Below, piece after piece: positions 8,737 through 60,902 of a DNA stretch of 64,000 bases (position 1 is the first letter of the stretch; each line of letters starts with the position of its first letter). Made by a program: the position numbers and the translations under genes. Source of the DNA: Channallabes apus (taxonomy: Eukaryota > Chordata > Actinopteri > Siluriformes > Clariidae); the NCBI GenBank assembly GCA_030522415.1, contig CM060107.1:3150847-3214846 (forward strand), read 5' to 3'. A model generated the notes under the pieces. That model was not told the origin of the DNA. It searched no databases and saw nothing but the letters and a program-made list of their open reading frames with translations.

Positions 8737-8740
8737 CCAC
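8737..8740. repeat. Target-site duplication of the provirus, left copy
   Basis: CCAC directly precedes the 5' LTR and CCAC directly follows the 3' LTR (39707-39710). A 4-bp duplication is normal for class I retroviruses. With the provirus and one CCAC removed, the flanks read continuously (ACCATGCCAC to TCTCAAAGTGATGC) through what looks like one older dispersed repeat. Confidence 0.9.
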
Positions 8741-9120
8741 TGTAAGCATATTTTAATTACATATATTTGTGCATGCAGTAATATTACAGAAAACTATTGA
8801 TTTTATCTTAAGGATGTGAGATGAAGTGAGCAGAGTTGAGCCAAGGACAATGTGATGTCATAGTACCAAAGACACCATGTGATGTTCAGTATACAGTATG
8901 TACCCAACAAACCTTAGACTGGCAGCCATCTTAGAGATCTCATAGTAACCCTAGAAACGACACCAGATCAGCAGATATGACATAGCCCCAGACATGATGT
9001 AATCTCAGACATGGGGTGATCTTAACTGTGATGTAACAGGCATTGGATACACAAGCAACATGTCAAATTAAATAACCAAAAAACACACACACACACACAT
9101 ACAGTGATCTGAATAATAAG

Positions 9121-9126
9121 TTTAAT
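9121..9126 (-). terminator. Possible poly(A) signal for the antisense LTR gene
   Basis: The minus strand reads ATTAAA here, about 190 bases beyond the stop codon of the antisense ORF. ATTAAA is the commonest variant of AATAAA. It is a short motif in AT-rich DNA, so the support is weak. Confidence 0.3.
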
Positions 9127-9312
9127 AAAGAAATAGACACAAAATAGTATGTGTATCTACATAGTGAATATTATACAATACAAAGTATTAGGCCCAACAT
9201 AAAAAAAGTATAAAAACACACAGGGCCTGGGTAAGCATCAGAAGCAAAATAGAATGCATAAGAAGTCAATAGGCAAAACCTCCTGTGAGGAAAGACAACA
9301 CCAATTTAAAAA

Positions 9313-9853
9313 TCAGTGAAAGGAAATAGAAACAGAAACGCCGCGATTTGGATTTGGCACAAGTGCGGAAGAAAAATCTGTTTGGGTACCAACAGACACT
9401 TTAACATCGGTCTGGGTGCCAACACTTACGTGACAAACAGGCTTTAAGACCAGTGGAGCTGGCGTTGTAGATTCAGGCCGTACAGGCCTAAAAGAAAATG
9501 GATAAGGGCTATCCGCACGTGGCCTCTTCGAAGGACCCGGTTTGGGATCAACATTCTTGGAAAAACTGAGCCCTGTCTCCTCTAGGAACTGCAGTAACGA
9601 AGCAGATGGCTCGGGCTCATCCTCAGTAAAACTCACCAAGGCCCGGTCCATGACAGGTTCAGTAGGAGTATAGTCAGTGGGACTGTGGGCCGGACTGCTC
9701 TGGCTGTCCGAGTCGTCCGGGGCGACGTGGTGATCGTTCGTGCAGATGCGATTAGCTATAAGAATAAAAATAGAGGATAAAAATAGGTAAATACAATAAA
9801 AGTCACAAACTTAGACAAATAATTAAAATAATATGTAGAAGATGCTTACCCAT
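9313..9853 (-). CDS. Antisense spliced LTR gene, 5' LTR copy (novel)
   Basis: On the minus strand an ATG at 9853-9851 is followed at once by a consensus donor (exon ends 9850, intron begins GTAAGC). A 94-nt intron ends TTCTTATAG at 9756. Exon 2 starts at 9755, stays open in the joined frame and stops at 9313, giving about 148 codons. The open piece from the internal ATG at 9651 alone is 112 codons. The product would have an acidic, Ser/Pro-rich N-terminal half (FTEDEPEPSASLLQFLEE), a basic KRPR that could be a nuclear signal, and two tandem SVGTQTD heptads. A TATA box lies about 46 bases upstream of the ATG. The 3' LTR keeps the same architecture with two residue differences. I know no homologue. 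A regulatory protein read from the antisense strand, as HBZ is in HTLV-1, is an inference from position and composition only. Confidence 0.65.
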
Positions 9854-9898
9854 GGCCTGTCTCTTGAAAACTGTAGAGTAAAGCGGAAGCACCAAGAA

Positions 9899-9904
9899 TT
9901 TATA
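9899..9904 (-). promoter_or_regulatory. TATA box of the antisense LTR gene
   Basis: The minus strand reads CTATAAATTC here. Transcription would start about 25-30 bases further on, near 9870-9875, just before the ATG at 9853. The same element is kept in the 3' LTR. Confidence 0.55.
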
Positions 9905-10156
9905 GCAGACATAAGCGCCACCCCAATATTTTTTAAGTTGAACAGAATAATAAAAGTGAAAAGATAATGGAAACTAATTTGAAAGGAAAATAATTTATAT
10001 TGGAAGCAAAATTTGGTAAAAGATGGAGTCAGATAACGAGGTATATGACGTATAATGCAAATGTAATTTTATTGGTTGAAAAATTTGATAAGGAACCAGA
10101 AAAAATAATGAGCAAATGAGGGGGCCAGATGAGCGTCCCGCCCCCCCGTAAAACTG

Positions 10157-10164
10157 TATAAAAG
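10157..10164 (+). promoter_or_regulatory. Sense LTR TATA box (U3)
   Basis: TATAAAAG preceded by a GC stretch CGTCCCGCCCCCCCG. It predicts a start near 10187-10190. The same motif is at 39462 in the 3' LTR. Confidence 0.8.
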
Positions 10165-10261
10165 AAGGCACCGATGTCACAGTAGATCAGTCTGTTCTTG
10201 GTGATGCTCTGATTCACATCTTAGGCATTGTCAGGACTGGCTCACTTTGTTTTATTGTTGC

Positions 10262-10267
10262 AATAAA
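10262..10267 (+). terminator. LTR poly(A) signal AATAAA
   Basis: AATAAA about 75 bases after the predicted cap site, the usual R-region position. In the 3' LTR it would direct 3' processing of viral RNA. Confidence 0.7.
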
Positions 10268-10406
10268 ACTTATCCTTACTTCATCTAGATCTACACGGAA
10301 TCCAGAGTCTTTCTTTAATTTCTTTTATTAAAATTACAGTATTTGTTTAATGTTTTAAATTAGGGCAACTTCGGTGTGGGGAGAATAAAAAATCCACCAC
10401 ATTTCT

Positions 10407-12395: not shown

Positions 12396-12856
12396 TGTCA
12401 TGATTCCAGTTCATAAGAGGCGGACGCAAGTGCAGGTGAAAATGAGTGAGTCTTTTAATGATAACAATAAATCCCCACAAACGTAAATTCCCCAAAAATA
12501 ACTCCCCTCACAGTGTCGTACTCGCTACAGACGAGGATGCTGAGTCCCGGGGTTATGACCCCTCTCCTGCCGTTAGTTTCAGTCCTGAAACGGAGAAGCA
12601 GGCTTTGTCAGCGTTACTAGTTTGCACTCTTAACATACACACACAAACTCTCACTCATTACAACGGTGGACGAACGGGTGGCTCCGGGGTCGGCTGGTTT
12701 ATATCGGTGCACACAAAGGGGAGACACAGGTGATACTAACTACAGGTAATCAGGACTGACATATACACACAGACACACTAGGGGGAGACAAAGGCTGCGG
12801 CTCAGTAGTCCGGGGAACCGGATCTTCTCTGAGGCCGTGGTGGTTCAGATGTTACA
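12396..12856 (-). repeat. 3' LTR of the Ty3 element
   Basis: 461 bp. On the plus strand it runs TGTCATGATTCC...CAGATGTTACA. The last 55 bases of the gag-pol ORF lie inside it. The TATA box (plus TTTATA, 12698-12703) and the RNA-start region (12667-12675) are present as in the other copy. Confidence 0.95.
12667..12675 (-). promoter_or_regulatory. Predicted RNA 5' end with self-priming complement (3' LTR copy)
   Basis: The minus strand reads GTTCGTCCA about 25 bases after TATAAA. It is complementary to TGGACGAAC at 17185-17177, just inside the 5' LTR. The same word lies in the 5' LTR at about 17459-17467, which would be the real RNA start. Confidence 0.55.
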
Positions 12857-15800
12857 GTACCCCCTCTCCCAGAACCGGCCTCCTGAGGGAGGCGAGGGCG
12901 CCCCCTACGCGCCGTCGAAGGGAGTGAGGATGCACCTGCTTGATGGAGCTGCCGGCGGGCAGGACGACCCGGTGGTCGCGGAGCCGGGCGATCCGGCCGT
13001 GCCCTGTGGAAATCTGAAATGAGTTCTTGACTCAGTATGTCCCGGGCCGGGACCCAACTCCGCTCTTCCGGGCCGTACCCCTCCCACTCGACGAGGTATT
13101 GCAAGGCACCTGCTCTCCTTCGTGAGTCCAGTAGTTCCTTCACCCGGAACGCGGGGGCGCCCCCGATGTCCACGGCCCCAGGGAGTGAAGGTTCCGCTGT
13201 TCCTTCATCTAGTGGGCCCCGGACCACCGGCCTGAGAAGAGAAATATGGAAAATGGGGTTAATGCGAAGATGTGTAGGGAGAGAAAGTCTATAGGAGACG
13301 GGGTTTATTTGTGCTGATATGGGAAATGGACCGATGAACCTGGGGGAGAGTTTCTTGCAGGGGAGGTTGAGGTGAAGGTCCCGTGTCGAGAGCCACACCC
13401 GATCGCCTACCTGGAGCGGAGGACTTTCCCGTCGTCGCCTATCGGCATACTTTTTAAAGCGCTGCACTGCGCGTGAAATTTTTGTGTGTGCGTCTTCCCA
13501 CACTTTCTCCGCTTTCTTAAACCACTCGTCCACCACAGGTACTTCGGTGGGAGTGGCGTCCCATGGACACAGCGGAGGTTGGTAGCCTAATATGCACTGA
13601 AACGGCGTTAGGCCGGTAGAGGAGTGGCGTAGCGAATTTTGTGCATATTCCGCCCAGAGTAGGTAGTCCGCCCATTCATGTTGTCTGCTGCTACAATATG
13701 CTCGAAGATATCTGCCGAGTTCTTGAACAGTCCGCTCTGCCTGCCCATTAGACTCGGGGTGATAGCCCGACGTTAGGCTAACAGTGGTCCCCAATTTCTG
13801 AAAGAACGCTTTCCAGACCCTGGCGATAAATTGGGGACCACGATCTGATACAATATCTTCGGGAATGCCGTAGCAACGAAACACTGAAGTGAATAGGGTT
13901 TCTGCCACCTGGAGGGCTGACGGAAGGGAACGAAACGGGATAAATCTACATCCCTTAGAGAACCTGTCTATTACCACGAGCACCGTGGTGTACCCGTTCG
14001 AGACCGGCAGGTCCGTGACAAAGTCCACTGCGATATGGGACCACGGTCTGTTCGGCACCGGGAGGGGCGTTAGTTTACCAACGGGTAGGCAACGGGGGTT
14101 CTTTGTAGTCGCACAGATGGCGCAAGACAGAACAACCTTTTTCACGGTTTCACTCATTTTAGGCCACCAGAACTTTGGTTCCAACAGGTGGGTGGTGCGG
14201 GTGACGCCGGGATGTCCTGATGCTAGACTCGTATGAGCCTCGATCGTCACTCGTTCACGAAGCGACTCCGGTACGTAGAGTCGATTCGGAGGACAGTCCC
14301 TAGGCACGGGGTTGGACCGTGCCCACTGGGCTATCTCCGACTCGATACTCCACATAACGGGAGCCACTACGAGCGACGCGGGGAGAATTGGTTCCGGATT
14401 GGTAATCGGCTCCGGCGACGGATAATAGCGGGAGAGCGCGTCCGCTTTGATGTTTTTAGAACCGGGGCGGTAAGTTATCACAAATCTGAAACGCGTGAAA
14501 AAGAGCGCCCAGCGGGCTTGACGTGAGTTCAGTCTTTTTGCCTGTTGGAGGTACTCGAGGTTACGGTGATCTGTGAGTACCGTGAATGAGTGTTTCGCCC
14601 CCTCCAGCCAGTGTCGCCACTCCCCTAACGCCGCCTTTACTGCTAATAGTTCTCTGTTACCGATATCATAATTCCGCTCGGCAGGTGTTAATTTCCTAGA
14701 GAAGAAAGCGCACGGGTAAAGTTTCTCGGGGTGGCCGTGACGCTGTGACAGCACGGCTCCTATCCCTACTTCAGACGCGTCGACCTCTACTATAAAAGGC
14801 TTCTCTGGGTTCGGTAGTTTTAATATAGGCGCCGTAGTAAATGTTGTTTTTAGTCGCGTAAACGCCTCCCGCGCTTCCTTTGGGAACTCACGGAGGCGTT
14901 TCGGCTTACCTGCCAACAGTGACGTGAGTGGTGCTGCCACCATGCTGAAGCCTCGGATAAAGCGTCTGTAAAAATTGGCAAACCCCAGGAATCTTTGTAG
15001 CTCCTTCACTGTCGTGGGTTCCGGCCATTGTTGCACGGCCGCGACTTTGGCTGACTCCATTTCGACCCCCAGTGGCCCTATGTGATAGCCGAGAAATGCC
15101 ACCTCCCGCTGATGAAATGAGCATTTCTCTGCCTTCACATAGAGCCCGTGTTTGCGCAGGCGCTGAAGGACGGCCGTTACATGACTGACGTGCTCGGAAT
15201 ATGACCGCGAATATACTAGGATGTCATCTAAGTATATTATGACAAAACGGTTGTACATATCCCTAAACAAGTCATTCATGAACCCCTGAAACACCGCAGG
15301 TGCGTTCACCAATCCATATGCCATTACGTTATATTGGTAATGCCCAGATGTAGTGCTAAACGCAGTCTTCCATTCATCACCCTTACGCACACGAACGAGG
15401 TTATATGCGCTGCGGAGGTCGAGTTTGGTGAAAATGGAGGCGCCTCGGAGCTGGTCTATTGCGGCCGGAACCAGGGGCAGTGGGTGCTTATATTTTATGG
15501 TTACTGCATTGAGTCCCCGATAATCTATACATGGCCGAAGGCCCCCCCCTTTTTTCTCTATGAAAAAAAAACCTGCCGAGGCGGGAGACGTGGACCTGCT
15601 GATGAGCCCCTGCTGGAGTGCCTCGCTCACGTATTCCTCCATTGCCCTGGTTTCTGTCACTGACAAGGGATAAATGCGCGAGCAAGGAGGTGCTTTCCCC
15701 GGCAGCAGCTCGATCGCGCAGTCCCACGGGCGATGAGGGGGAAGTCGTGCAGCAGCCCTAGCACTAAACACCTGTTCAAACCTCGCATACTCTGATGGCA

Positions 15801-17193
15801 CGTTCACTTTGTGTGGGGCATTCGGACTCTCTATGGTGGTGGTTTGGACCGTCACTATGGGCGGTGTACAAGTTTTGGCGCATCTAGGGGACCAAGAAAC
15901 GATACTTGATTGAGCCCAATTGAAATTAGGGTTATGGGCGCTAAGCCAGGGGAGACCTAGCACGACGGAATGATCAGACTGAGGGAGTACGAAGAATTTT
16001 AGCTCCTCCGTGTGATCAGGGAAGGTTAACCGCAGTGGCGCTGTGATTAATTTAATAGGCGACTGGTCTAATTCACGGCCATCTAGAGCTTTAACTGGTA
16101 TCGGTTGCGGAAGCTTCGACACGGGAGCTCGCAGTGTGGAAATCAATGCCGAGGAGATGAAGTTCCCAGCCGCCCCGGAATCTACTAAAGGGAAGACAGA
16201 CACAACAGCGTTACAAAAAGACACTTGTGCTTTTACACAAAAAGGATGATGCGTGCGGGGCGGTGTGCGTGACGTTACTTTGAGTAACGGGCAGTCCTTA
16301 ATGCGGTGCCCGTCCCCCCCACAGTATAGGCACAGGCCCGCTGTGACGCGCCTTCTTCTCTCCGCATTCGTGAGGCGGGAACTGCTCACGTCCATAGGCT
16401 CGGGTCGAGCTGTATCTCCCGTATCACGAGGCGGTCTCCGAGGTGTGTCGCAGAGGCGGGGTGGTGCTGACCTGGTGAGTGGTCGCTGGCGCTGGCTGCG
16501 CAGATGCTGGTCGAGCTTAATCGCCAGGCCGATGGTTTCGTCCAGCGAGAGGTTGGCGTCCCGGCACGCCAGCTCGAGCTGGATTTCTGGCTGGAGTCCA
16601 TCACGGAACCGCGCGAGCAGGCTCCGCTCGCACCAGCCGCTCTCCGCCGCCATGACCCGAAATTTGATGGCGTAGTCCGCCACCGGCGCACTCCCTTGCC
16701 TCAGCCGCATGAGACGCTGTTCCCCGGAACGCCCCTGGTCTGGGTGGTCAAAGACCGCCTTCATAGCGTCCATGAAGCGATGATACCGAGAGGTGAGCTC
16801 TCCCCCTTCGCTCCAGATCGCTGCGGCCCAATCCATGGCCGGACCTGTGAGCTGCTGAATGACAAAACGGATTCGCTGGGTGTCCGTCATGTCAGGGTAA
16901 TCGGATAAATATAGTTCACAGGCCAGGAAAAATCGCTTACACCCCTCCGGATCGCCGGCATATCTCTCCGGGGGGTTGGCGCGCGGTGGTGAGGGGGTGG
17001 AGCTTTGAGGGGGTGTCCCAGCCGGTGCGGAGGGGTTTGGAAAAGCCAGGTGTTTTATACTGTGGGCTAGGTCGCTCACCGCTCGTGCGAGCCCCTCGAT
17101 CTGGACCTGTTGTTTCTCGATGTAGCGCATTGGGTTCTCATCATCCGGCAGAGGGACACCTGCTGCGTCCTGATAGGTTCGTCCATCTGTCAT
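12802..17193 (-). CDS. Gag-pol polyprotein of a chromodomain Ty3 element
   Basis: A single uninterrupted ORF of 1463 codons. Gag occupies about residues 1-310 and ends with one CCHC knuckle, CLYCGGDGHRIKDC (288-301). An aspartic protease with DSGA follows near 336. The reverse transcriptase has YLDD at 654-657, and RNase H begins about VEVDASEVGIG. The integrase has an HHCC finger (SGHPGVTRTTH...CAIC) and the core residues in VDFVTDLP, VSDRGPQF and HPESNGQAERTV. The chromodomain lies near 1345-1395 (LQYLVEWEGYGPEERSW) and binds histone marks to guide insertion in this group. Gag and Pol are fused in one frame, as in Tf1. The ATG at 17193 lies in the last bases of the LTR. All catalytic residues look present. 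Confidence 0.95.
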   Translation of the reverse strand: MTDGRTYQDAAGVPLPDDENPMRYIEKQQVQIEGLARAVSDLAHSIKHLAFPNPSAPAGTPPQSSTPSPPRANPPERYAGDPEGCKRFFLACELYLSDYPDMTDTQRIRFVIQQLTGPAMDWAAAIWSEGGELTSRYHRFMDAMKAVFDHPDQGRSGEQRLMRLRQGSAPVADYAIKFRVMAAESGWCERSLLARFRDGLQPEIQLELACRDANLSLDETIGLAIKLDQHLRSQRQRPLTRSAPPRLCDTPRRPPRDTGDTARPEPMDVSSSRLTNAERRRRVTAGLCLYCGGDGHRIKDCPLLKVTSRTPPRTHHPFCVKAQVSFCNAVVSVFPLVDSGAAGNFISSALISTLRAPVSKLPQPIPVKALDGRELDQSPIKLITAPLRLTFPDHTEELKFFVLPQSDHSVVLGLPWLSAHNPNFNWAQSSIVSWSPRCAKTCTPPIVTVQTTTIESPNAPHKVNVPSEYARFEQVFSARAAARLPPHRPWDCAIELLPGKAPPCSRIYPLSVTETRAMEEYVSEALQQGLISRSTSPASAGFFFIEKKGGGLRPCIDYRGLNAVTIKYKHPLPLVPAAIDQLRGASIFTKLDLRSAYNLVRVRKGDEWKTAFSTTSGHYQYNVMAYGLVNAPAVFQGFMNDLFRDMYNRFVIIYLDDILVYSRSYSEHVSHVTAVLQRLRKHGLYVKAEKCSFHQREVAFLGYHIGPLGVEMESAKVAAVQQWPEPTTVKELQRFLGFANFYRRFIRGFSMVAAPLTSLLAGKPKRLREFPKEAREAFTRLKTTFTTAPILKLPNPEKPFIVEVDASEVGIGAVLSQRHGHPEKLYPCAFFSRKLTPAERNYDIGNRELLAVKAALGEWRHWLEGAKHSFTVLTDHRNLEYLQQAKRLNSRQARWALFFTRFRFVITYRPGSKNIKADALSRYYPSPEPITNPEPILPASLVVAPVMWSIESEIAQWARSNPVPRDCPPNRLYVPESLRERVTIEAHTSLASGHPGVTRTTHLLEPKFWWPKMSETVKKVVLSCAICATTKNPRCLPVGKLTPLPVPNRPWSHIAVDFVTDLPVSNGYTTVLVVIDRFSKGCRFIPFRSLPSALQVAETLFTSVFRCYGIPEDIVSDRGPQFIARVWKAFFQKLGTTVSLTSGYHPESNGQAERTVQELGRYLRAYCSSRQHEWADYLLWAEYAQNSLRHSSTGLTPFQCILGYQPPLCPWDATPTEVPVVDEWFKKAEKVWEDAHTKISRAVQRFKKYADRRRRESPPLQVGDRVWLSTRDLHLNLPCKKLSPRFIGPFPISAQINPVSYRLSLPTHLRINPIFHISLLRPVVRGPLDEGTAEPSLPGAVDIGGAPAFRVKELLDSRRRAGALQYLVEWEGYGPEERSWVPARDILSQELISDFHRARPDRPAPRPPGRPARRQLHQAGASSLPSTARRGRPRLPQEAGSGRGGTVTSEPPRPQRRSGSPDY
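17177..17187 (-). promoter_or_regulatory. Self-priming site of the Ty3 element
   Basis: On the element strand the LTR end is followed by GA and then TGGACGAAC. This nonamer pairs perfectly with GTTCGTCCA in the LTR, placed where transcription should start. Tf1 and sushi elements are known to prime reverse transcription with their own RNA 5' end in this layout. No tRNA-complementary TGG site was recognised instead. Confidence 0.6.
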
Positions 17194-17648
17194 GATTCCA
17201 GTTCATAAGAGGCGGACGCAAGTGCAGGTGAAAATGAGTGAGTCTTTTAATGATAACAATAAATCCCCACAAACGTAAATTCCCCAAAAATAACTCCCCT
17301 CACAGTGTCGTACTCGCTACAGACGAGGATGCTGAGTCCCGGGGTTATGACCCCTCTCCTGCCGTTAGTTTCAGTCCTGAAACGGAGAAGCAGGCTTTGT
17401 CAGCGTTACTAGTTTGCACTCTTAACATACACACACAAACTCTCACTCATTACAACGGTGGACGAACGGGTGGCTCCGGGGTCGGCTGGTTTATATCGGT
17501 GCACACAAAGGGGAGACACAGGTGATACTAACTACAGGTAATCAGGACTGACATATACACACAGACACACTAGGGGGAGACAAAGGCTGCGGCTCAGTAG
17601 TCCGGGGAACCGGATCTTCTCTGAGGCCGTGGTGGTTCAGATGTTACA
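17188..17648 (-). repeat. 5' LTR of the Ty3 element
   Basis: 461 bp, apparently identical to 12396-12856. It is the promoter-bearing LTR for the minus-strand ORF. Confidence 0.95.
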
Positions 17649-18950: not shown

Positions 18951-19273
18951 TTATGTCATATATTCACTAAACACCTTGTCTTTAAACATTTTTTTAAATC
19001 TATGAAGTGAATTACATAATTTTAATTCCATATTACATTTATTCCATAAATTAACCCCTTTAATGGAAATGCATTTATTCTTTAAATTTGTTCTGGCCCT
19101 TATTTTGCTAAACATCAACATTCCTCTTAGACAGTAGTACTGGCTGACTTTAATTTTGAACAGCCTCTGGATGCAGCTGGGAAGTAAATTATTATAGGCT
19201 TTATACATTATTTGTGCAGTATACAAATCAACTAGATCCACAAATTTCAAAACTTTAGATTTTATAAACAATT
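18951..19273 (-). CDS. LINE reverse transcriptase, C-terminal piece
   Basis: About 106 codons (FIKSKVLKFVDL to KVFSEYMT) form the end of the ORF that begins at 23109. When the Tc1 element and one TA are disregarded, this piece continues the upstream frame without a break. It holds the conserved LINE tail region with YKAYNNLLP. Confidence 0.75.
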
Positions 19274-19275
19274 TA

Positions 19276-20897
19276 CAGTGGTGTGAAAAACTATTTGCCC
19301 CCCTCCTGATTTCTTATTCTTTTGCATGTTTGTCACACAAAATGTTTCTGATCATCAAACACATTGAACTATTAGTCAAAGATAACACAAGTAAACACAA
19401 AATGCAGTTTTTAAATGAGGGGTTTTATTATTTAGGGAGAAAAAAAAAATCCAAACCTACATGGCCCTGTGTGAAAAAGTAATTGCCCCCTGAACCTAAT
19501 AACTGGTTGGGCCACCCTTAGCAGCAATAACTGCAATCAAGCGTTTGCGATAACTTGCAGCGAGTCTTTTACAGCGCTCTGGAGGAATTTTGGCCCACTC
19601 ATCTTTGCAGAATTGTTGTAATTCAGCTTTATTTGAGGGTTTTCTAGCATGAACCGCCTTTTTAAGGTCATGCCACAACATCTCAATAGGATTCAGGTCA
19701 GGACTTTGACTAGGCCACTCCAAAGTCTTCATTTTGTTTTTCTTCAGCCATTCAGAGGTGGATTTGCTGGTGTGTTTTGGGTCATTGTCCTGCTGCAGCA
19801 CCCAAGATCGCTTCAGCTTGAGTTGACGAACAGATGGCCGGACATTCTCCTTCAGGATTTTTTGGTAGACAGTAGAATTCATGGTTCCATCTATCACAGC
19901 AAGCCTTCCAGGTCCTGAAGCAGCAAAACAACCCCAGACCATCACACTACCACCACCATATTTTACTGTTGGTATGATGTTCTTTTTCTGAAATGCTGTG
20001 TTACTTTTACGCCAGATGTAACGAGACACGCACCTTCCAAAAAGTTCAACTTTTGTCTCGTCGGTCCACAAGGTATTTTCCCAAAAGTCTTGGCAATCAT
20101 TGAGATGTTTATTAGCAAAATTGAGACGAGCCTTAATGTTCTTTTTGCTTAAAAGTGGTTTGCGCCTTGGAAATCTGCCATGCAGGCCGTTTTTGCCCAG
20201 TCTCTTTCTTATGGTGGAGTCGTGAACACTGACCTTAATTGAGGCAAGTGAGGCCTGCAGTTCTTTAGATGTTGTCCTGGGGTCTTTTGTGGCCTCTCGG
20301 ATGAGTTGTCTCTGCGCTCTTGGGGTAATTTTGGTCGGCCGGCCACTCCTGGGAAGGTTCACCACTGTTCCATGTTTTTGCCATTTGTGGATAATGGCTC
20401 TCACTGTGGTTCGCTGGAGTCCCAAAGCTTTAGAAATGGCTTTATAACCTTTACCAGACTGATAGATCTCAATTACTTTTGTTCTCATTTGTTCCTGAAT
20501 TTCTTTAGATCTTGGCATGATGTCTAGCTTTTGAGGTGCTTTTGATCTACTTCTCTGTGTCAGGTAGCTCCTATTTAAGTGATTTCTTGATTGAAACAGG
20601 TGTGGCAGTAATCAGGCCTGGGGGTGACTACAGAAATTGAACTCAGGTGTGATAAACCACAGTTAAGTTATTTTTTAACAAGAGGGGCAATCACTTTTTC
20701 ACACAGGGCCATGTAGATTTGGAGTTTTTTTTCTCCCTTAATAACATAAACCTTCATTTAAAAACTGCATTTTGTGTTCAATTATGTTATCTTTGTCTAA
20801 TAGTTAACGGTTTTTGATGAGCAGAAACATTTAAGTGTGACAAACATGCAAAAGAATAAGAAATCAGGAAGGGGGCAAATAGTTTTTCACACCACTG
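19276..20897 (-). mobile_element. Tc1 transposon with full-length transposase
   Basis: 1622 bp with TIRs starting CAGTGGTGTGAAAAACTATT at both ends and TA duplications (19274-19275, 20898-20899). The first 60 or so bases of the two TIRs match closely and then diverge, so this copy is not brand new. The transposase resembles the Passport branch of fish Tc1 elements, by memory of the family only. Confidence 0.95.
19496..20518 (-). CDS. Tc1 transposase
   Basis: 340 codons, the usual full length, without stops. The N-terminal paired-type helix-turn-helix region (residues 1-110) has GYKAISKALGLQRTTVRAI, then a GRPTKITPR hook. The catalytic DDE domain has the first Asp in LWTDETKVELFG, the second in QQDNDPKHT and Glu in PDLNPIEMLW. 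There are 34 residues between the last two, so DD34E as in Tc1. The glycine-rich box GGGSVMVWGCF is present. It ends KGGPTSY. It cuts and pastes elements bearing its TIRs at TA sites. It could be functional. Confidence 0.95.
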   Translation of the reverse strand: MPRSKEIQEQMRTKVIEIYQSGKGYKAISKALGLQRTTVRAIIHKWQKHGTVVNLPRSGRPTKITPRAQRQLIREATKDPRTTSKELQASLASIKVSVHDSTIRKRLGKNGLHGRFPRRKPLLSKKNIKARLNFANKHLNDCQDFWENTLWTDETKVELFGRCVSRYIWRKSNTAFQKKNIIPTVKYGGGSVMVWGCFAASGPGRLAVIDGTMNSTVYQKILKENVRPSVRQLKLKRSWVLQQDNDPKHTSKSTSEWLKKNKMKTLEWPSQSPDLNPIEMLWHDLKKAVHARKPSNKAELQQFCKDEWAKIPPERCKRLAASYRKRLIAVIAAKGGPTSY

Positions 20898-20899
20898 TA

Positions 20900-23109
20900 T
20901 TTGTGTGTTCATAATAATCGGCCTTATTAACAATCCTTATTGCTTTTTTTTGTAACACAGATATTGGGTTTAAATAAGTTTTATAAGGATGCCCCCATAC
21001 CTCCACACAATAAGTGATGTATGGAAATATGAGTGTACAATACAATATGCATAATGTTTTATTATCCAATACATACTTTAATCTGTTAAGAATTCCAACT
21101 GATTTAGAGATTTTTGTCTTAATAAAATTAATATGTGGTTTCCAATTCAGTTTGTTGTCAATTATTACTCCCAAAAATTTAATTTCGGAGACTCTTTCTA
21201 TTTCCTCATTATTAATTCTTATTTTCACATCATGATTAATTTTTTGATTACTAAAAATTATGAACTTAGTTTTAGTCAAATTCAATGAAAGCTTACTATC
21301 ATCTAACCAACTTTTAAGCCTCAGCAATTCATTTTCCACTGTGTTCAGAAGCTGTTTCAAATTTTTACCTGATAAATATAAAGTAGTGTCATCAGCAAAT
21401 AATAAAAATTTTAATACATTGGACACTTTATCAATATCATTAACATACAACACAAATAATTTAGGGCCCAATACTGAACCTTGTGGAACACCGCATGTAA
21501 CTTCCAATAAGTCAGATTTGTCATTATTAATTTGTACATACTGATGTCTGCTTTCCAGGTAGCTTTTTATCCAGTCTAACGCTTTTCCTCTTATTCCATA
21601 ATTTAACAATTTCTTCACTAATAAATCATAATCAATTGTATCAAATGCTTTCTTTAAATCTAAAAATACTCCCAATGTATATTCCTTGTTTTCTACTGCA
21701 GTTGAGATATCTTCAACCATTTTCATTACTGCCATTGAAGTCGACCTCTTAGTCCTAAATCCGAATTGATATTCACTCAGTAAATTATGTTTTTCTATAA
21801 ATTTGTCAAGCCTCTGCACAAATACTTTCTCTAAGATTTTTGAAAACTGCGGCAGAAGAGCAATTGGTCTGTAATTAGAGAAGGAATACTGATCTCCTCC
21901 TTTAAAGATCGGAATAACTTTTGCCATTTTCATTTTACTAGGAAAGATACCGGTTAAGAAAGACAGATTACAAATGTAAGCAAAAGGTTTTGCTATACTC
22001 ACAATTATATTTTTTAATAATGACATGTCTAGATCATCACAATCGGTGGAATATTTACTCTTGCAATTATTAACTGTTAGAAGTATTTCTTTTTCATCTA
22101 CAGCCTGAATAAACATTGTATACTTATTACATAAGTTTTTTACTTCATTCACTGATCCATGTTTAGTAATTTTTTCTGCTAATTTAGATCCAACATTTAC
22201 AAAATACTTATTAAATTCATTGACAATATCTTCCCCTTTATTTATACTTTGATTATCATCATTTACAAAACGATTTGGGTAATCAAAACTACATGTATTA
22301 TTTTTAAGTATACCATTAAGTACCTTCCATGTTGCTTTGACATTGTTTTTATGGATATTCAATAACCTATTGTAATAGTCCTTCTTACTGAATCTTATTA
22401 TATTTTGTAATTTATTTTTGTAAGTCTTATAATCAATTTCTGCTTGTTTTGATCTTGTTGTTAGAAATTCCGTGAATAGGACATTTTTCTTTTTACATGC
22501 CTTCTCTATTCCTTCAGAAATCCATGGTTTATATACATTCTTTTGCTTTATTATAATCCTCTTAGATGAACAATGTTTATTAATTTGCTCATTTAATATA
22601 TTCAAGAACACTTCATATGCCTTACTGGGGTTGCTATATGCATAAACTTCATCCCAATTTTGTATTTTTAAATCTTCATTAAGAGCATCTATTGCCTCTT
22701 GTGTTCTATTGCGAATAATTTTATAACTATTAGTCCTTTTTTTGAGGGGGGGATTTTTCAATAAATCATAGAAAATCACAAAAACTGGAAGATGGTCTGT
22801 GATATCATTGATAAGCAACCCTCCTAGTCTTTTTCCTTTTAATTCATTAGTATATATATGATCTATTAATGTTGCTGTATCTTTTGTCAATCTACTAGGT
22901 TTTGTTATCATTGGAATCAAACCATAACTGTACAGTGCATCAATAAAATTAGCAATTCTCTTACTTCCATGTGGATTTAGTAAATCAATGTTAAGATCAC
23001 CACATATGATGTTTACCTTATTTTTAATTGATTGGTCAAACATATCAAATAACTCTTTTGTAAATTTATCAATGCATGTGCCTGGAGCTCTGTACACACA
23101 ACTGATCAT
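20900..23109 (-). CDS. LINE endonuclease (partial) and reverse transcriptase
   Basis: About 740 open codons. The N-terminal part is the second half of an APE endonuclease (YRAPGT, CGDLNIDLLN, IDHIYTN, ITDHLPVF). The reverse transcriptase has YRPIALLPQFSKILEK, FGFRTKRST, FLDLKKAFDTIDYDLL, CGVPQGSVLGPKLF and the catalytic FADDTTLY (box at about 21388-21399). The frame stays open upstream of the first ATG until a TAG about 45 bases further on. The open frame is cut by Tc1 insertion after HTN. No other break is seen. Confidence 0.85.
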
Positions 23110-26386: not shown

Positions 26387-26659
26387 ATGATAAGTGGAGT
26401 TAGAGCAATTAACTGGGACGAGCAGATAAGTGAAGAAGGAGTTTTAAATAAGTGTGAACGGGAGTTTAGAATTTCGGAGTCAGATCAGAGTGAAACAAAT
26501 AAATGGTTGTTGAATAATCCAGGAAAGGATCTACTTTTAGTGAAAGAGTGTGATAACGGAGAGTGGACACTTAGGCTTTCGTTAATACCTGACGTATTAG
26601 AGCTTAACTGTGACACACACACCTTAATTCTTACATCATATTTTAGAATGAAGATATGA
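26387..26659 (+). CDS. 5' accessory ORF 1 of the provirus (unknown)
   Basis: 90 codons, no recognised family, no membrane segment or zinc motif. The product is acidic and begins MISGVRAINWDE. Its TGA stop overlaps the next ATG as ATGA (26656-26659). A position between leader and gag matches orfC of walleye dermal sarcoma virus, but no sequence similarity is claimed. Intact in an otherwise damaged provirus. The start context is weak (C at -3). Confidence 0.6.
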   Translation: MISGVRAINWDEQISEEGVLNKCEREFRISESDQSETNKWLLNNPGKDLLLVKECDNGEWTLRLSLIPDVLELNCDTHTLILTSYFRMKI

Positions 26660-27006
26660 GTCATTTCCTTGGATTAGTTCCTAAAGAGATTCGTTTAAAA
26701 GTAATAAATAGCACATTTGAATTTGGAGGATTAGGTGGACCTCCACGTTTAACTCCGCTCATTTCACTACTGCAAACATACCCAGATTTTGATATATTAT
26801 ATTTAGAAGAAGACGCAGAAGGCCGAAAAGCAAAAAGATACAGATTAACAGGAGCACAGACAGGTCCGGTAGTGCTGAGTCGTATGTGGATGGTTGACAA
26901 CAAAAGCGAATTTATGATAATACCTTTTGGACCAGACGGGAGAATAATTTTTCAGACCCTTGACAAAATCGTTACGCCTCTGATACTGACACCAGTGGAA
27001 AATTAA
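26656..27006 (+). CDS. 5' accessory ORF 2 of the provirus (unknown)
   Basis: 116 codons without interruption. It is rich in Leu/Ile/Pro with FEFGGLGGPPRLTPL near the start and FMIIPFGPDGRIIF in the second half, suggesting a small globular domain. No signal peptide and no family that I recognise. The start overlaps the previous stop (ATGA) and its own stop overlaps the next ATG (TAATG, 27004-27008). This chain suggests coupled termination-reinitiation or use of separate spliced RNAs. Confidence 0.6.
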   Translation: MSHFLGLVPKEIRLKVINSTFEFGGLGGPPRLTPLISLLQTYPDFDILYLEEDAEGRKAKRYRLTGAQTGPVVLSRMWMVDNKSEFMIIPFGPDGRIIFQTLDKIVTPLILTPVEN

Positions 27007-27800: not shown

Positions 27801-29750
27801 TCACATGAGTCAAGAGAAACCAAAGAACTGCAAGGTAGAGGAAGAGAAATGAAAAGACTGAAAGAACAAAATGTGAAATTCCTGTCAGAAATACAGGGAC
27901 TCAGAAATGAACAACAAGTCACGTCGAAAAGAAGGATGATGGAAAGCAACAAAAGGAAGCAGTCCCGGGAGAGATTCGAAGGAAAGAACATGCAAAGAGG
28001 AAATAGCATAAAGTCATATCCTGAACAACCATACACATCCCTTCATGAGTCTGACAGAGATGAAGCAGAAACTGAAGAAGAGGTAATCGAGCTAGATCGA
28101 CAAGAACCAGTGAAAAGAAAAGTTAAAGGGCACCTGATCATTGAATCTGAAAAAGAAGCAAGGAAGAGAACAGAAAGAAAAGAACAGACAAGCACACCAC
28201 GACGCAATGACCAATACAGAAGCAAATATCAATGGGAAGATGCTAGTACACAGGCAGAGGATGATGACAGTGAAGCCCTTGATGAAGCAATCAGTCAAAT
28301 AGAAAATCGAATTGACAGACGCATAAAAAACTCAGAAAAGAAAATGAAAAAAGCTGCAAAAAAGTTGTCTGCATCAGACATGCCATCAAGCTGGAAGGTC
28401 CTCTCATCCTGGCCTGATAAAGGAGGACATGGGAAACACACCAGTTTTGACGAACAGCACATGCTGCATGATGAAGATGAAAATGAAAGATACACTAGTT
28501 TTAATGAACACATGCCAGACCCGGAAGACCACAATGAAGGTAGACAATTCCCACTTGTTGTTAAAGGAAGTAGGTACCAATATGTGCCATGGTCATTCAT
28601 GGATATGACAGGCCTGGCAAATCAATTACCAGACTTGTGCAATGGAGCCCAAAGATGGATAACACAGTTTGAAGAAAAAACTACTGGACACCTCCTAGCA
28701 CTGGGAGATGTAAAAGCTATTCTAGCACAAACAATTGGGAAAGTGAAAACCACAGAAATACTGGATGAAGCTAACCTGCATACATTAACAGGACAGAACA
28801 GAGGAGATACCCTAGCATTTGGGCCTCTCAGAAACAGGATATGGGATGCCCTTCGAAAAGCCTATCCCACCAAAATGGATCCAGGAAAACTGGAATCAGT
28901 AGCAATGAAAGAAGATGACAATGTTGTAAAATTCATCAATGATTTCCAGACAAAATGGAGAGAGGAAACTGGAGGCTCCTGGGACCAAACAGATACCAGT
29001 AAGAGCCTGTTCCGAATGATGCTGAAAAAGTGCATGCCTCAGGAAGTCCAAACAGCCCTGGAAGGGGTAGTGGGACTGAACACATTGCCATGGGAAACAT
29101 TTCAAGCACACATTGTACACTATGTGGACCAACATCGAAAGAAGAAGAGGGAAGCTAAAGAAACTGCTGAGTCGATCGCAACCCAGTTACACAAAATACA
29201 ACTGGGGGAATTCACAGCTGCAAAGAAAAAGGAAAAAGAGAAAGTTAAAGGTCAAGTCCAAGCAGCAGTAATGGTGCCTGAAAATCCGATAACACCGCCT
29301 CCTGCTGGACCAGTGCAGCAAATACCACAACCAGCAGCAGCCAATGCCCCTCCAACATATGTGCACCCTGGAAACCAACAAGGACAAAATCCACCCATGA
29401 GGTGGCAAGGACAGGGCCCCAGGCCTTATGGAGGCAGGGGACAAAGGGGACCATACCAACAGAAACCAAGGAGACAACCATTCAGAATGAATTCCCCAGG
29501 GCAAATGGGCCCAAATACTCAAGACATGCAGTGTTGGCAGTGTGGAGGAGCAGGACACATTAGAAGAAATTGTCCACAAATGTCATGGGCTCAAAATGGA
29601 CCCCAACCTCAGGGGCCATATGGAGCAGCACAAGCACCTCGAGGGAATATGGGACCTCCTGGCCCCAGACAACCTCCTGGACCATGGACACAAGGACAGC
29701 CCCAGAATCAGTGGACAGGTCCCTGGATGGGACCACAGAATTGGAATTGA
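27801..29750 (+). CDS. gag: gag, 3' part: capsid and nucleocapsid
   Basis: It continues in the frame of the preceding piece; the first internal ATG is at 27849 (633 codons). A charged, probably coiled-coil region (MKRLKEQNVKFLSEIQ) comes first, then the capsid starting near FPLVVKGSRYQYVPWSF and containing MTGLANQLPDLCNGAQRW. The capsid style is that of class I retroviruses. The nucleocapsid has a single CCHC knuckle CWQCGGAGHIRRNC (29532-29573) inside a Pro/Gln/Gly-rich tail. It ends with TGA at 29748-29750, followed by CAAGGC. Pro-pol continues in the same frame, so expression of Pol would need readthrough of this UGA, as gammaretroviruses do with UAG. Confidence 0.92.
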   Translation, partial: SHESRETKELQGRGREMKRLKEQNVKFLSEIQGLRNEQQVTSKRRMMESNKRKQSRERFEGKNMQRGNSIKSYPEQPYTSLHESDRDEAETEEEVIELDRQEPVKRKVKGHLIIESEKEARKRTERKEQTSTPRRNDQYRSKYQWEDASTQAEDDDSEALDEAISQIENRIDRRIKNSEKKMKKAAKKLSASDMPSSWKVLSSWPDKGGHGKHTSFDEQHMLHDEDENERYTSFNEHMPDPEDHNEGRQFPLVVKGSRYQYVPWSFMDMTGLANQLPDLCNGAQRWITQFEEKTTGHLLALGDVKAILAQTIGKVKTTEILDEANLHTLTGQNRGDTLAFGPLRNRIWDALRKAYPTKMDPGKLESVAMKEDDNVVKFINDFQTKWREETGGSWDQTDTSKSLFRMMLKKCMPQEVQTALEGVVGLNTLPWETFQAHIVHYVDQHRKKKREAKETAESIATQLHKIQLGEFTAAKKKEKEKVKGQVQAAVMVPENPITPPPAGPVQQIPQPAAANAPPTYVHPGNQQGQNPPMRWQGQGPRPYGGRGQRGPYQQKPRRQPFRMNSPGQMGPNTQDMQCWQCGGAGHIRRNCPQMSWAQNGPQPQGPYGAAQAPRGNMGPPGPRQPPGPWTQGQPQNQWTGPWMGPQNWN

Positions 29751-34408: not shown

Positions 34409-34604
34409 ATTATTTAAACCAACTACAGTAGAAAGAACATACCCAACAAAAAACACCCCAAGAAATATATTGTGTAGATTATTTGGCCATAATCCCACGT
34501 GTCACCGTTGTGATCCTGATGGAGAAACCATCCTCTTATTACCGCCTAAAAAACAGAAGGAAGTCTATGGGAATAACAATACTTCTTATGATCGGTTTGA
34601 CTAG
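34383..34604 (+). CDS. Small ORF across the pol-env junction
   Basis: 73 codons in the third frame, overlapping the end of pol and the start of the env ORF. It contains GHNPTCHRCDPDG, a Cys/His cluster, and a Lys-rich end. The env frame over the same bases (34483-34566) reads less like protein than env after the ATG at 34567, so this ORF may be the real coding frame here. No family recognised. Confidence 0.3.
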   Translation: MILAQILIKLFKPTTVERTYPTKNTPRNILCRLFGHNPTCHRCDPDGETILLLPPKKQKEVYGNNNTSYDRFD

Positions 34605-36441: not shown

Positions 36442-36670
36442 AAGAAGACCAACTACACTGCATAATGGACAATTGACTATATCCTTATTGATCACGTGTA
36501 TATTGAAAATTTATCTAATGTAACAACATATTTTAATCCAACTTATTTAATCCATGTTTTAAGTAACCATATCAGAGAAAAAGTAGTATTAGTAGAAAAA
36601 GTATGTCTTCTATTTTGTGTTTTGTTTTTGTGTTTGTGTTTTGTTCTGCTATACACGTATGTATTGCAGG
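36442..36670 (+). other. Gap between env and 3' ORF with splice acceptor
   Basis: Pyrimidine-rich TTTTGTTCTGCTATACACG leads to TATGTATTGCAG/GATGG at about 36659-36673, a good splice acceptor directly before the next ATG. Confidence 0.5.
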
Positions 36671-38052: not shown

Positions 38053-39706
38053 TGTAAGCATATTTTAATTACATATATTTGTGCATGCAGTAATATTACA
38101 GAAAACTATTGATTTTATCTTAAGGATGTGAGATGAAGTGAGCAGAGTTGAGCCAAGGACAATGTGATGTCATAGTACCAAAGACACCATGTGATGTTCA
38201 GTATACAGTATGTACCCAACAAACCTTAGACTGGCAGCCATCTTAGAGATCTCATAGTAACCCTAGAAACGACACCAGATCAGCAGATATGACATAGCCC
38301 CAGACATGATGTAATCTCAGACATGGGGTGATCTTAACTGTGATGTAACAGGCATTGGATACACAAGCAACATGTCAAATTAAATAACAAAAAAACACAC
38401 ACACACACACATACAGTGATCTGAATAATAAGTTTAATAAATAAATAGACACAAAATAGTATGTGTATCTACATAGTGAATATTATACAATACAAAGTAT
38501 TAGGCCCAACATAAAAAAGTATAAAAACACACAGGGCCTGGGTAAGCATCAGAAGCAAAATAGAATGCATAAGAAGTCAATAGGCAAAACCTCCTGTGAG
38601 GAAAGACAACACCAATTTAAAAATCAGTGAAAGGAAATAGAAACAGAAACGCCGCGATTTGGATTTGGCACAAGTGCAGAAGAAAAATCTGTTTGGGTAC
38701 CAACAGACACTTTAACATCGGTCTGGGTGCCAACACTTACGTGACAAACAGGCTTTAAGACCAGTGGAGCTGGCGTTGTAGATTCAGGCCGTACAGGCCT
38801 AAAAGAAAATGGATAAGGGCTATCCGCACGTGGCCTCTTCGAAAGACCCGGTTTGGGATCAACATTCTTGGAAAAACTGAGCCCTGTCTCCTCTAGGAAC
38901 TGCAGTAACGAAGCAGATGGCTCGGGCTCATCCTCAGTAAAACTCACCGAGGCCCGGTCCATGACAGGTTCAGTAGGAGTATAGTCAGTGGGACTGTGGG
39001 CCGGACTGCTCTGGCTGTCCGAGTCGTCCGGGGCGACGTGGTGATCGTTCGTGCAGATGCGATTAGCTATAAGAATAAAAATAGAGGATAAAAATAGGTA
39101 AATACAATAAAAGTCACAAACTTAGACAAATAATTAAAATAATATGTAGAAGATGCTTACCCATGGCCTGTCTCTTGAAAACTGTAGAGTAAAGCGGAAG
39201 CACCAAGAATTTATAGCAGACATAAGCGCCACCCCAATATTTTTTAAGTTGAACAACAAAAGTGAAAAGATAATGGAAACTAATTTGAAAGGAAAATAAG
39301 TTATATTGGAAGCAAAATTTGGTAAAAGATGGAGTCAGATAACGAGGTATATGACGTATAATGCAAATGTAATTTTATTGGTTGAAAAATTTGATAAGGA
39401 ACCAGAAAAAATAATGAGCAAATGAGGGGGCCAGATGAGCGTCCCGCCCCCCGTAAAACTGTATAAAAGAAGGCACCGATGTCACAGTAGATCAGTCTGT
39501 TCTTGGTGATGCTCTGATTCACATCTTAGGCATTGTCAGGACTGGATCACGTTGTTTTATTGTTGCAATAAAACTTATCCTTACTTCATCTAGATCTACA
39601 CGGAATCCAGAGTCTTTCTTTAATTTCTTTTATTAAAATTACAGTATTTGTTTAATGTTTTAAATTAGGGCAACTTCGGTGTGGGGAGAATAAAAAATCC
39701 ACCACA
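38053..39706 (+). repeat. 3' LTR of the provirus
   Basis: 1654 bp, nearly identical to 8741-10401. Differences seen by eye include a 5-base shortening after GTTGAACA (near 39252) and single-base run changes. The TATA box is at 39462 and AATAAA lies about 105 bases on. It is followed by CCAC (39707-39710), the right target duplication. Confidence 0.95.
38624..39164 (-). CDS. Antisense spliced LTR gene, 3' LTR copy (novel)
   Basis: Same architecture as 9313-9853. The ATG is at 39164-39162, the exon ends at 39161 and the intron starts GTAAGC. The intron ends TATAG before 39066, and the stop is at 38624. The ORF from the internal ATG at 38962 has 112 codons and differs from the 5' copy by two residues (Ser for Leu in MDRA.VSF and Leu for Pro in PKPG.SKR). 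Reading frame, splice sites and TATA box (about 39210) are all kept. This copy would be transcribed from the 3' LTR back toward env, the usual origin of retroviral antisense messages. Confidence 0.65.
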
Positions 39707-39710
39707 CCAC

Positions 39711-60765: not shown

Positions 60766-60817
60766 AATAGACCTGCTTCATCATTTAGCACTCAATACAA
60801 TTTGCTAAAAGCAGCAG

Positions 60818-60888
60818 GCATTGGTGGTTCAGTGGTAGAATTCTCGCCTGCCACGCGGGCGGCCTGGGTTCGATTCCCGGCCAATGCA
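60818..60888 (+). tRNA. tRNA-Gly (GCC)
   Basis: 71 nt with a complete cloverleaf. The acceptor stem is GCATTGG/CCAATGC and the anticodon stem CTCGC/GCGGG, with loop CTGCCAC giving anticodon GCC at 60850-60852. The T arm is CTGGG-TTCGATT-CCCGG, with one G-T pair. A box TGGTTCAGTGG and B box GGTTCGATTCC are intact. No CCA is encoded. The terminator is weak: only TTTCTTT follows within 12 bases, then L2 sequence starts. Probably functional, decoding GGC/GGU. Confidence 0.93.
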
Positions 60889-60902
60889 CATGTTTCTTTG
60901 AC

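What the first reader, a model, noticed from the sequence alone, without database searches (positions are those of the whole stretch)
9313..9904. A spliced gene on the antisense strand inside both LTRs of the retrovirus
The minus strand of each LTR has, in order, a TATA box (CTATAAATTC), an ATG, a consensus donor one base after that ATG (G/GTAAGC), a 94-nt intron, an acceptor (TTCTTATAG), and an ORF. The ORF stays open for about 146 codons in exactly the joined frame. All of this is also present at 38624-39210. Antisense genes are known in HTLV-1 (HBZ) and a few other retroviruses. A complete promoter-intron-ORF unit lying wholly inside the LTR, so that every provirus and solo LTR carries it, is not something I know of.
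Basis: partly seen in the sequence, partly recalled or inferred. Interest (0 to 1): 0.92.

Follow-up and report, generated by a model that had tools for sequence, protein, structure and literature searches.

The report
Backward spliced gene inside retrovirus LTRs
The repeated ends of a recently active fish retrovirus carry a small complete gene that reads backwards, needs splicing, and was kept working by natural selection while the virus copied itself, so many stand-alone repeat ends left in the genome carry the gene too.

Summary
The window holds a provirus with two 99%-identical 1.66-kb LTRs. On the minus strand of each U3 lie a TATA box, ATG, donor, 94-nt intron, acceptor and a frame that joins to 148 aa. 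In the host assembly 150 copies were scored (of 727 candidates); I fetched 130 and aligned 123. Of these, 109 keep a spliced frame of 140 aa or more, although introns vary from 86 to 96 nt. Indels shared between proviruses are frequent in flanks and intron but absent from TATA-to-donor and from codons that took no part in choosing the copies (0 seen, 10 expected, P=4e-5). Changes older than integration are depleted in amino-acid changes; younger ones look neutral (that contrast alone is modest). Against five older copies dN/dS is 0.15-0.34. Of 27 aligned solo LTRs with an exact target duplication, 24 keep the frame. An NCBI-annotated Clarias gariepinus protein, 79% identical, starts exactly at the predicted splice. 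A gene under selection is shown; its role is inferred: a disordered, probably nuclear regulator with two LC8-type motifs, working like HTLV-1 HBZ but not related to it by any test here. No RNA was available.

The parts
8741..10401 (+). 5' LTR of the provirus (U3 about 1.44 kb)
   Evidence: self-comparison, TG...CA ends, 4-bp duplication CCAC at 8737-8740 and 39707-39710
38053..39706 (+). 3' LTR of the same provirus
   Evidence: 99.0% identical to the 5' LTR; differences listed
9896..9905 (-). antisense TATA box CTATAAATTC
   Evidence: identical in 123 of 124 aligned rows
9850..9853 (-). exon 1 coding part: ATG plus first base of codon 2, in GCCATGG context
   Evidence: ATGGGTAAGC in 119 of 124 rows
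9756..9849 (-). intron, 94 nt, GTAAGC...TTCTTATAG
   Evidence: lengths 86-96 nt in other copies with the same spliced frame
9313..9755 (-). exon 2 with the rest of the 148-codon frame and TGA
   Evidence: selection tests
9574..9603 (-). codons 53-62 (ASLLQFLEET), the only predicted helix, next to an acidic stretch
   Evidence: AlphaFold2 model, pLDDT 78 in this block, 55 overall
9517..9528 (-). KRPR, basic stretch resembling a nuclear localisation signal (motif recalled, not tested)
   Evidence: sequence; KRPR in 118 of 123 aligned copies; KRLR or KRPC in three of five older copies
9406..9429 (-). first LC8-type motif VSVGTQTD
   Evidence: compare VSRGTQTE in PMC3078936
9376..9399 (-). second LC8-type motif VSVGTQTD; differs from the first at 6 of 24 nt and 0 of 8 residues
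9121..9126 (-). candidate antisense poly(A) signal ATTAAA; GU-rich run follows (CA repeat on +, 9083-9099)
10157..10162 (+). sense TATA box of the virus, 252 bp from the antisense TATA and pointing away from it
10262..10267 (+). sense poly(A) signal AATAAA
39207..39216 (-). antisense TATA box, 3' LTR copy
39161..39164 (-). exon 1 coding part, 3' LTR copy
39067..39160 (-). intron, 3' LTR copy
38624..39066 (-). exon 2, 3' LTR copy

Best explanation
It is a real protein-coding gene of the retrovirus, transcribed from its own TATA promoter on the minus strand of U3, spliced once and probably polyadenylated before the LTR's outer end. Its intron survives because the genomic RNA runs the other way and cannot splice it. 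Reverse transcription copies U3 to both ends, so one gene in the virion RNA becomes two in the provirus and one in each solo LTR. The gene was kept by selection during viral replication and drifts after integration. Likely role (inferred, about 0.4): a mostly disordered, probably nuclear adaptor, paired by the host hub LC8/DYNLL through two VSVGTQTD motifs, that tunes transcription from the U3 shared by the sense and antisense promoters, as HBZ and APH-2 do in HTLV. Shown: sequence anatomy, coding selection, presence in solo LTRs, relatives elsewhere. Inferred: transcription, splicing, poly(A) site, localisation, LC8 binding, effect on the LTR. The confidence below is for the gene, not for the role.
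For: Relatives: two database proteins at 77-79% identity over 99% of the 148 aa. The Clarias gariepinus protein LOC128540840 (NCBI; by its name presumably a RefSeq gene model) begins MANRICTN, i.e. the spliced product; the other is an intron-read-through call on an 863-bp ENA contig. Copies: 150 scored of 727 candidates in the host; 107 of 124 aligned rows give exactly 148 aa after splicing although introns measure 86, 87, 90, 94, 95 or 96 nt, and the unspliced reading is 16 codons in 117 of 124. Indels shared by two or more proviruses: 16 in 445 nt and 40 in 523 nt of flanking LTR, 4 in 79 nt of intron, 0 in 62 nt TATA-to-donor, 0 in 113 nt of acceptor plus codons 2-36 that were not in the search query (P=4e-5); private indels in that 113-nt stretch occur at the neutral rate, 8 seen and 8.7 expected. 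Amino-acid (plus stop) to silent variants before integration 43:37, against neutrality P=1e-3 to 2e-5; after integration 28:7, as neutral. dN/dS 0.28 within the main family and 0.15-0.34 against five older copies (P=4e-4 to 7e-9). TATA-to-ATG differs by 1.0% between copies, other noncoding parts by 3.2-4.6%. The two LC8-type repeats differ at 6 of 24 nt but no residue (neutral simulations 5e-5 to 1.2e-4). 37 of 40 LTRs chosen by R/U5 DNA alone carry the 112-codon stretch without a stop.
Against: No RNA or peptide evidence was available; what supports the Clarias model could not be seen. Copies chosen by protein score are biased towards intact frames in codons 37-148; the indel test and the 40-LTR check avoid that, dN/dS does not fully. 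The direct contrast of pre- with post-integration variants is modest: Fisher P=0.012, but 0.073 if two LTR pairs more than 1.5% apart, perhaps mispaired, are left out (post 21:7), and 0.042 for shared against all private variants. Variant counts are not independent along the tree. Exon 2 as a whole is not less variable than its flanks (0.040 substitutions per site to the window copy against 0.027-0.033); only its amino-acid sites are. 14 of 123 LTRs are broken or lack the unit; the one extra LTR found by DNA alone has only 105 aa. The antisense promoter and poly(A) site are consensus matches only. No Pfam or NCBIfam family and no solved structure matches, so the role rests on short motifs. The period-3 pattern of the repeats fits one sense-strand reading nearly as well (one residue changed), but that frame is only 37 codons long.
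Confidence: 0.88

Rival explanations
1. The unit makes a functional antisense RNA (decoy or silencer of the sense transcript) and the open frame is incidental.
For: Noncoding U3 antisense RNA is described for ERV9, and LTRs often transcribe both ways (PMC5237517 passages; PMC10186651 sections 4 and 6).
Against: Selection acts on codons: amino-acid changes are depleted before integration, dN/dS 0.15-0.34, no shared indels in codons 2-36, synonymous divergence of the repeat motifs. An RNA function may exist in addition.
Confidence: 0.05
2. A coding antisense gene, but its product works outside the nucleus: as an LC8/dynein adaptor for transport or assembly of viral particles, or by occupying LC8 to change cell survival.
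For: Two LC8-type motifs close to the phage-evolved optimum, well conserved; at position -1 the variants are T, I and V, the three that the published motif allows.
Against: KRPR basic stretch and an acidic helix-forming stretch point to the nucleus; in HTLV the antisense proteins act on the LTR (PMC10186651 passages). Neither is a test.
Confidence: 0.3
3. A host gene that the virus captured, or a solo LTR that the host has taken over, with the many copies as by-products.
For: Exon 2 is 52% GC against 34% in the rest of the LTR, as if acquired; the Clarias hit is annotated as a gene.
Against: The two protein searches (5.8 billion sequences, limited to relatives sharing short exact words) gave only the same two hits, whose own genomic setting was not seen; copies sit in LTRs of many recent proviruses. 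An old capture is not excluded.
Confidence: 0.05
4. Chance open frame with chance splice-like sites, spread by copying of the LTR.
For: Frames this long are not very rare in this LTR's composition (23 of 2000 shuffles reach 162 codons).
Against: Everything under coding selection above; full unit in 1 of 4000 and 0 of 4000 shuffles.
Confidence: 0.02

Closest known systems
HTLV-1 HBZ and HTLV-2 APH-2 (antisense genes of deltaretroviruses)
   Same: minus-strand gene driven from an LTR promoter, spliced, with the first exon in the LTR (HBZ exon position recalled; spliced transcripts and 3' LTR start sites from PMC10186651 passages); APH-2 also lacks a bZIP
   Different: their ORFs lie outside the LTR between env and the 3' LTR (recalled), so a solo LTR cannot carry them; no family hit for the fish protein; no direct sequence comparison was made
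HIV-1 ASP
   Same: antisense protein with no known homologs (PMC12568219, start of abstract in the listing)
   Different: unspliced frame opposite env (recalled), outside the LTR
ERV9 U3 antisense RNA
   Same: antisense transcript from U3
   Different: described as an RNA decoy (PMC5237517 passages)
MMTV Sag (recalled, no call)
   Same: a protein encoded inside the LTR
   Different: sense strand, made from the viral sense transcript
Antisense extra ORFs of plant LTR retrotransposons (Grande gene23, RIRE2, Retand)
   Same: conserved antisense ORF with its own promoter in Grande
   Different: located between pol and the 3' LTR (PMC7264820 abstract and passages)
Accessory ORFs of fish retroviruses (SnRV, walleye viruses)
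   Same: complex fish retroviruses with extra small genes
   Different: in SnRV made from sub-genomic viral mRNAs, i.e. on the sense strand; SnRV provirus is 11.2 kb (PMC12193657 passages)

Membership tests
Retroviral antisense gene (general kind) | open frame on the minus strand of a provirus with gag, pol and env | tested here: met
   minus frame in both LTRs; zinc knuckle, protease, RT, RNase H and integrase matches on +, Env TM below the curated cut-offs
Retroviral antisense gene (general kind) | coding selection | tested here: met
Retroviral antisense gene (general kind) | minus-strand transcript starting in the LTR | not testable with these tools
   only consensus TATA and poly(A) motifs and an annotated protein in another species
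HBZ family | bZIP domain | tested here: not met
   no Pfam match at E up to 1; model disordered with one short helix
HBZ family | ORF outside the LTR, only exon 1 in the LTR | tested here: not met
   whole unit in U3; the family feature itself is recalled
LC8/DYNLL client proteins | core of the motif: [T/V/I]-1 Q0 [T/V]1 [D/E]2, with S or D at -4, in a disordered region | tested here: met
   VSVGTQTD twice, also V-5 and G-2 of the evolved VSRGTQTE; single copies and the database relatives depart at +2 or -4
LC8/DYNLL client proteins | K (natural) or R (evolved) at -3 | tested here: not met
   V at -3 in both motifs
LC8/DYNLL client proteins | binds LC8 | not testable with these tools
   needs a binding assay
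Class I-like (gamma/epsilon-type) retrovirus | 4-bp target duplication, MLV-type integrase C-terminus, CX6CC-type Env TM (features recalled) | tested here: inconclusive
   CCAC duplication, MLVIN_C 2.8e-11, TLV_coat 0.0014 below its cut-off; the CX6CC stretch is read from the ORF; no tree was built
Lokiretroviruses | position in an RT phylogeny | not tested
   considered on the way; only literature listings and passages were looked at

The most novel reading that the evidence does not exclude
An LTR can be a self-contained gene: a retrovirus placed a complete antisense transcription unit inside U3, so every integration doubles it and recombination to a solo LTR leaves a working gene behind. 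The host genome would then hold a hundred or more intact copies of a viral regulator that could act in trans on all proviruses of the family, a route to dosage-dependent self-control or to domestication.
Probability: 0.5. Interest if true: 0.9.

Novelty: new variant of a known kind. Interest (0 to 1): 0.84.

Why it matters
[quoted passage not shown] Here the case rests on selection, not on an open frame alone. Because the gene is within the LTR, the usual view of solo LTRs as promoters without genes does not hold for this family, and repeat masking would hide such genes in other genomes. The family looks recently active (13 of 35 LTR pairs identical), so expression, splicing and function can be tested in living fish cells.

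Tried and rejected
Pfam, NCBIfam and solved-structure searches of the antisense protein gave nothing. A profile search with three sequences found no relatives beyond the same two. Viral and prokaryotic contig collections gave no locus. The AlphaFold2 model is disordered (mean pLDDT 55), so no fold search was made. ORF length as evidence was rejected as weak. A comparison of minimal nucleotide changes between intron and exon against P0001 did not separate them (7 in 25 codons against 33 in 138); only the indels did. A host-gene origin was considered because exon 2 is GC-rich; the searches made give nothing else for it. The intron-read-through reading of P0001 as a membrane-anchored isoform was dropped, because the same reading stops after 16 codons in 117 of 124 aligned rows. 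The idea that the host is Clarias gariepinus was dropped: among the 150 scored copies none exceeds 81% identity to the Clarias protein.

Full report
What is there. The window holds a provirus from 8741 to 39706, flanked by the 4-bp duplication CCAC. Its sense genes match a zinc knuckle, protease, RT, RNase H and integrase with an MLV-type C-terminus and, below the curated cut-offs, Env TM families. Its 30,966 bp are swollen by nested elements. In the host assembly, 17 of 35 paired LTRs lie 14.6-15.0 kb apart, so the plain provirus is about 16.5 kb.

The unit. On the minus strand of each LTR lie CTATAAATTC, 52 nt later GCCATGG with the donor one base after the ATG, a 94-nt intron, and a frame that joins to 148 codons. 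The unspliced frame stops after 16 codons. A minus-strand ATTAAA at 9126 is followed by a GU-rich run. The sense TATA is at 10157 and the sense AATAAA at 10262. So the unit is wholly in U3, and the two promoters point away from each other, 252 bp apart. A unit of this make-up turns up in 1 of 4000 and 0 of 4000 shuffles.

Relatives in databases. Two proteins match at E up to 1: a Clarias gariepinus protein (161 aa, 79% identity; NCBI LOC name, presumably a RefSeq model) that starts MANRICTN, so its first two residues come from the same splice, and a 190-aa call on an 863-bp ENA contig that reads through an 87-nt intron (length inferred from the protein). A profile of the three finds no more. 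The evidence behind the Clarias model and its genomic setting were not seen. Neither carries the window family's C-terminus; both run on past it.

Copies in the host. The assembly that holds the window (1.165 Gb, 93 contigs) has 727 candidates for the 112-codon piece. The best 150 were scored, and 147 of the 150 have no stop. Seven short or incomplete LTRs were dropped, leaving 123 plus the window's 5' LTR as reference row; that LTR is also L001, so it counts twice among the 124 rows. TATA is identical in 123 of 124 rows, ATGGGTAAGC in 119 of 124. Where the standard unit is found (117 of 124), introns are 94 nt (69), 86 (37), 95 (6), 87 (2), 96 (2) or 90 (1), and the spliced protein is 148 aa in 107. 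By kind, frames of 140 aa or more: 38 of 42 5' LTRs, 39 of 44 3' LTRs, 29 of 34 LTRs without PBS or PPT, 3 of 3 others. Of 35 loci of the solo kind among all 130, 28 have an exact 4-bp duplication; 27 of the 28 are in the alignment and 24 of these 27 keep a frame of 140 aa or more.

Selection, with and without the bias of the search. The copies were chosen by similarity over codons 37-148, which favours intact frames there. Two checks avoid this. First, distinct indels shared by two or more proviruses: 16 in 445 nt (right LTR part), 40 in 523 nt (left part), 4 in 79 nt (intron), 0 in 62 nt (TATA to donor), 0 in 113 nt (acceptor and codons 2-36, outside the query), 0 in 336 nt (query part). At the flank-and-intron rate, 10.0 are expected in the 175 unbiased nt (P=4e-5). 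Private indels in the 113 nt are 8 against 8.7 expected, so single copies decay freely. Second, 40 LTRs picked by 222 bp of R/U5 only (40 of 514 candidates scored): 39 lie beside a hit (positions compared) and 37 of 40 are free of stops there; two (one LTR pair) have a TAG, and the last, L136, has only 105 aa. These are the best DNA matches, so young copies prevail.

Variants before and after integration. In one LTR of a pair only: 26 amino-acid changes, 2 stops and 7 silent; in both LTRs of one provirus: 8, 1 and 10; in two or more proviruses: 34, 0 and 27; in unpaired copies: 46, 0 and 22. Neutral expectation is 2.4-3.0 amino-acid changes per silent one. Pre-integration 43:37 is below neutrality with P=1e-3 to 2e-5, post-integration 28:7 is not different from it. 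The direct contrast gives Fisher P=0.012, 0.042 for shared against all private variants, and 0.073 when two LTR pairs more than 1.5% apart, perhaps mispaired, are dropped (post 21:7). So this contrast is supporting evidence only. The counts are not independent along the tree.

dN/dS. 0.28 over 89 distinct intact ORFs; with one LTR per provirus, 0.45 for codons 2-36 and 0.27 for codons 37-148. Exon 2 as a whole is not less variable than the flanks (0.040 substitutions per site to the window copy against 0.027-0.033): its silent sites vary more (pS 0.060), its amino-acid sites less (pN 0.017), than noncoding LTR (3.2-4.6% between copies, but 1.0% from TATA to ATG). Against five older copies found with the Clarias protein dN/dS is 0.34, 0.23, 0.15, 0.29 and 0.31, each with P below 5e-4. 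Pairs among the older copies give 0.29-0.72, as expected where decay after integration is added. Over the 138 codons compared, the only indel is one 15-nt in-frame loss in L135, while the alignable introns carry indels. L131 has no alignable promoter and exon 1; in L135 the ATG, TATA and acceptor are not recognisable; three of the five (L132, L133, L135) hold a stop in the stretch matched.

What the protein looks like. Disordered, with one helix at codons 53-62 beside an acidic run, a KRPR stretch (118 of 123 copies; KRLR or KRPC in three of five older copies), and two VSVGTQTD motifs 10 residues apart. The phage-evolved best ligand of LC8/DYNLL is VSRGTQTE; the natural motif allows T, V or I at -1 and has K at -3 (PMC3078936, abstract and passages); here -3 is V. 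In the copies, position -1 is T, V (2 proviruses) or I (older copies L133, L134), and Q0 is invariant in the aligned copies. Departures: N at +2 of the first motif in 2 proviruses, G at +2 of the second in 1, N or I at -4 in 1 each. In the two database proteins the second motif ends in A instead of D, and the first has N at -4, in the Clarias protein also D at -3, which may weaken binding. The motifs are well conserved but not more so than several other stretches of the protein. Between the two repeats 6 of 24 nt differ and no residue does.

Mechanism. Shown: a coding gene under selection during viral spread, carried by both LTRs and by solo LTRs. Inferred: transcription and splicing; dimer formation through LC8; nuclear action on U3. 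I put about 0.4 on an HBZ-like regulatory role, 0.3 on an LC8-centred role outside the nucleus, and the rest on others.

Known ground. Antisense proteins are described for HTLV/STLV and HIV-1 (PMC10186651 abstract, passages and sections 4 and 6); the same review sees no evidence of such proteins in endogenous retroviruses. Plant elements have antisense ORFs between pol and the 3' LTR (PMC7264820, abstract and passages). I found no description of an antisense gene wholly within an LTR in the searches (listings of the best-ranked papers only, open-licence papers only).

Noticed in passing
8741-39706 and host assembly G000: 17 of 35 paired LTRs lie 14.6-15.0 kb apart, so the plain provirus is about 16.5 kb, large for a retrovirus (comparison recalled); 13 of 35 LTR pairs are identical, so the family was active very recently.
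   Followed up: partly
26387-26659, 26656-27006, 36617-37354 (+): Three sense ORFs of 90, 116 and 245 aa before gag and after env without a family match above cut-off; they look like accessory genes of a complex retrovirus.
   Followed up: no
27849-36441 (+): gag and the protease-RT ORF lie in the same frame, gag ending in TGA; pol is split between two frames around 31721-31739; env has an in-frame TGA at 36049-36051. Described only.
   Followed up: no
12396-17648 (-): Nested Ty3-type element with 100% identical 461-bp LTRs, an open 1463-aa frame with a chromodomain, and 5-bp duplication ACTAT: a very young insertion.
   Followed up: partly
18951-23109 (-): A Tc1/Sleeping Beauty-type transposon (about 19274-20899) appears to sit inside a LINE-type RT element, itself inside the provirus.
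   Followed up: no
L006, L007, L008: Three LTRs in a row 16,405 bp apart on one contig with the same match score: a tandem LTR-internal-LTR-internal-LTR array, presumably from recombination between LTRs.
   Followed up: no
9313-9340 (-): The window's subfamily has a different C-terminus from the Clarias protein and from older copies because of indels near codons 140-146.
   Followed up: partly
L131: Older copy with most of exon 2 (80% to the Clarias protein) but no alignable TATA, exon 1 or intron; could be a rearranged LTR or a different promoter.
   Followed up: no
60818-60889 (+): A tRNA-Gly prediction lies at the start of a LINE-like RT frame (60802-62355).
   Followed up: no
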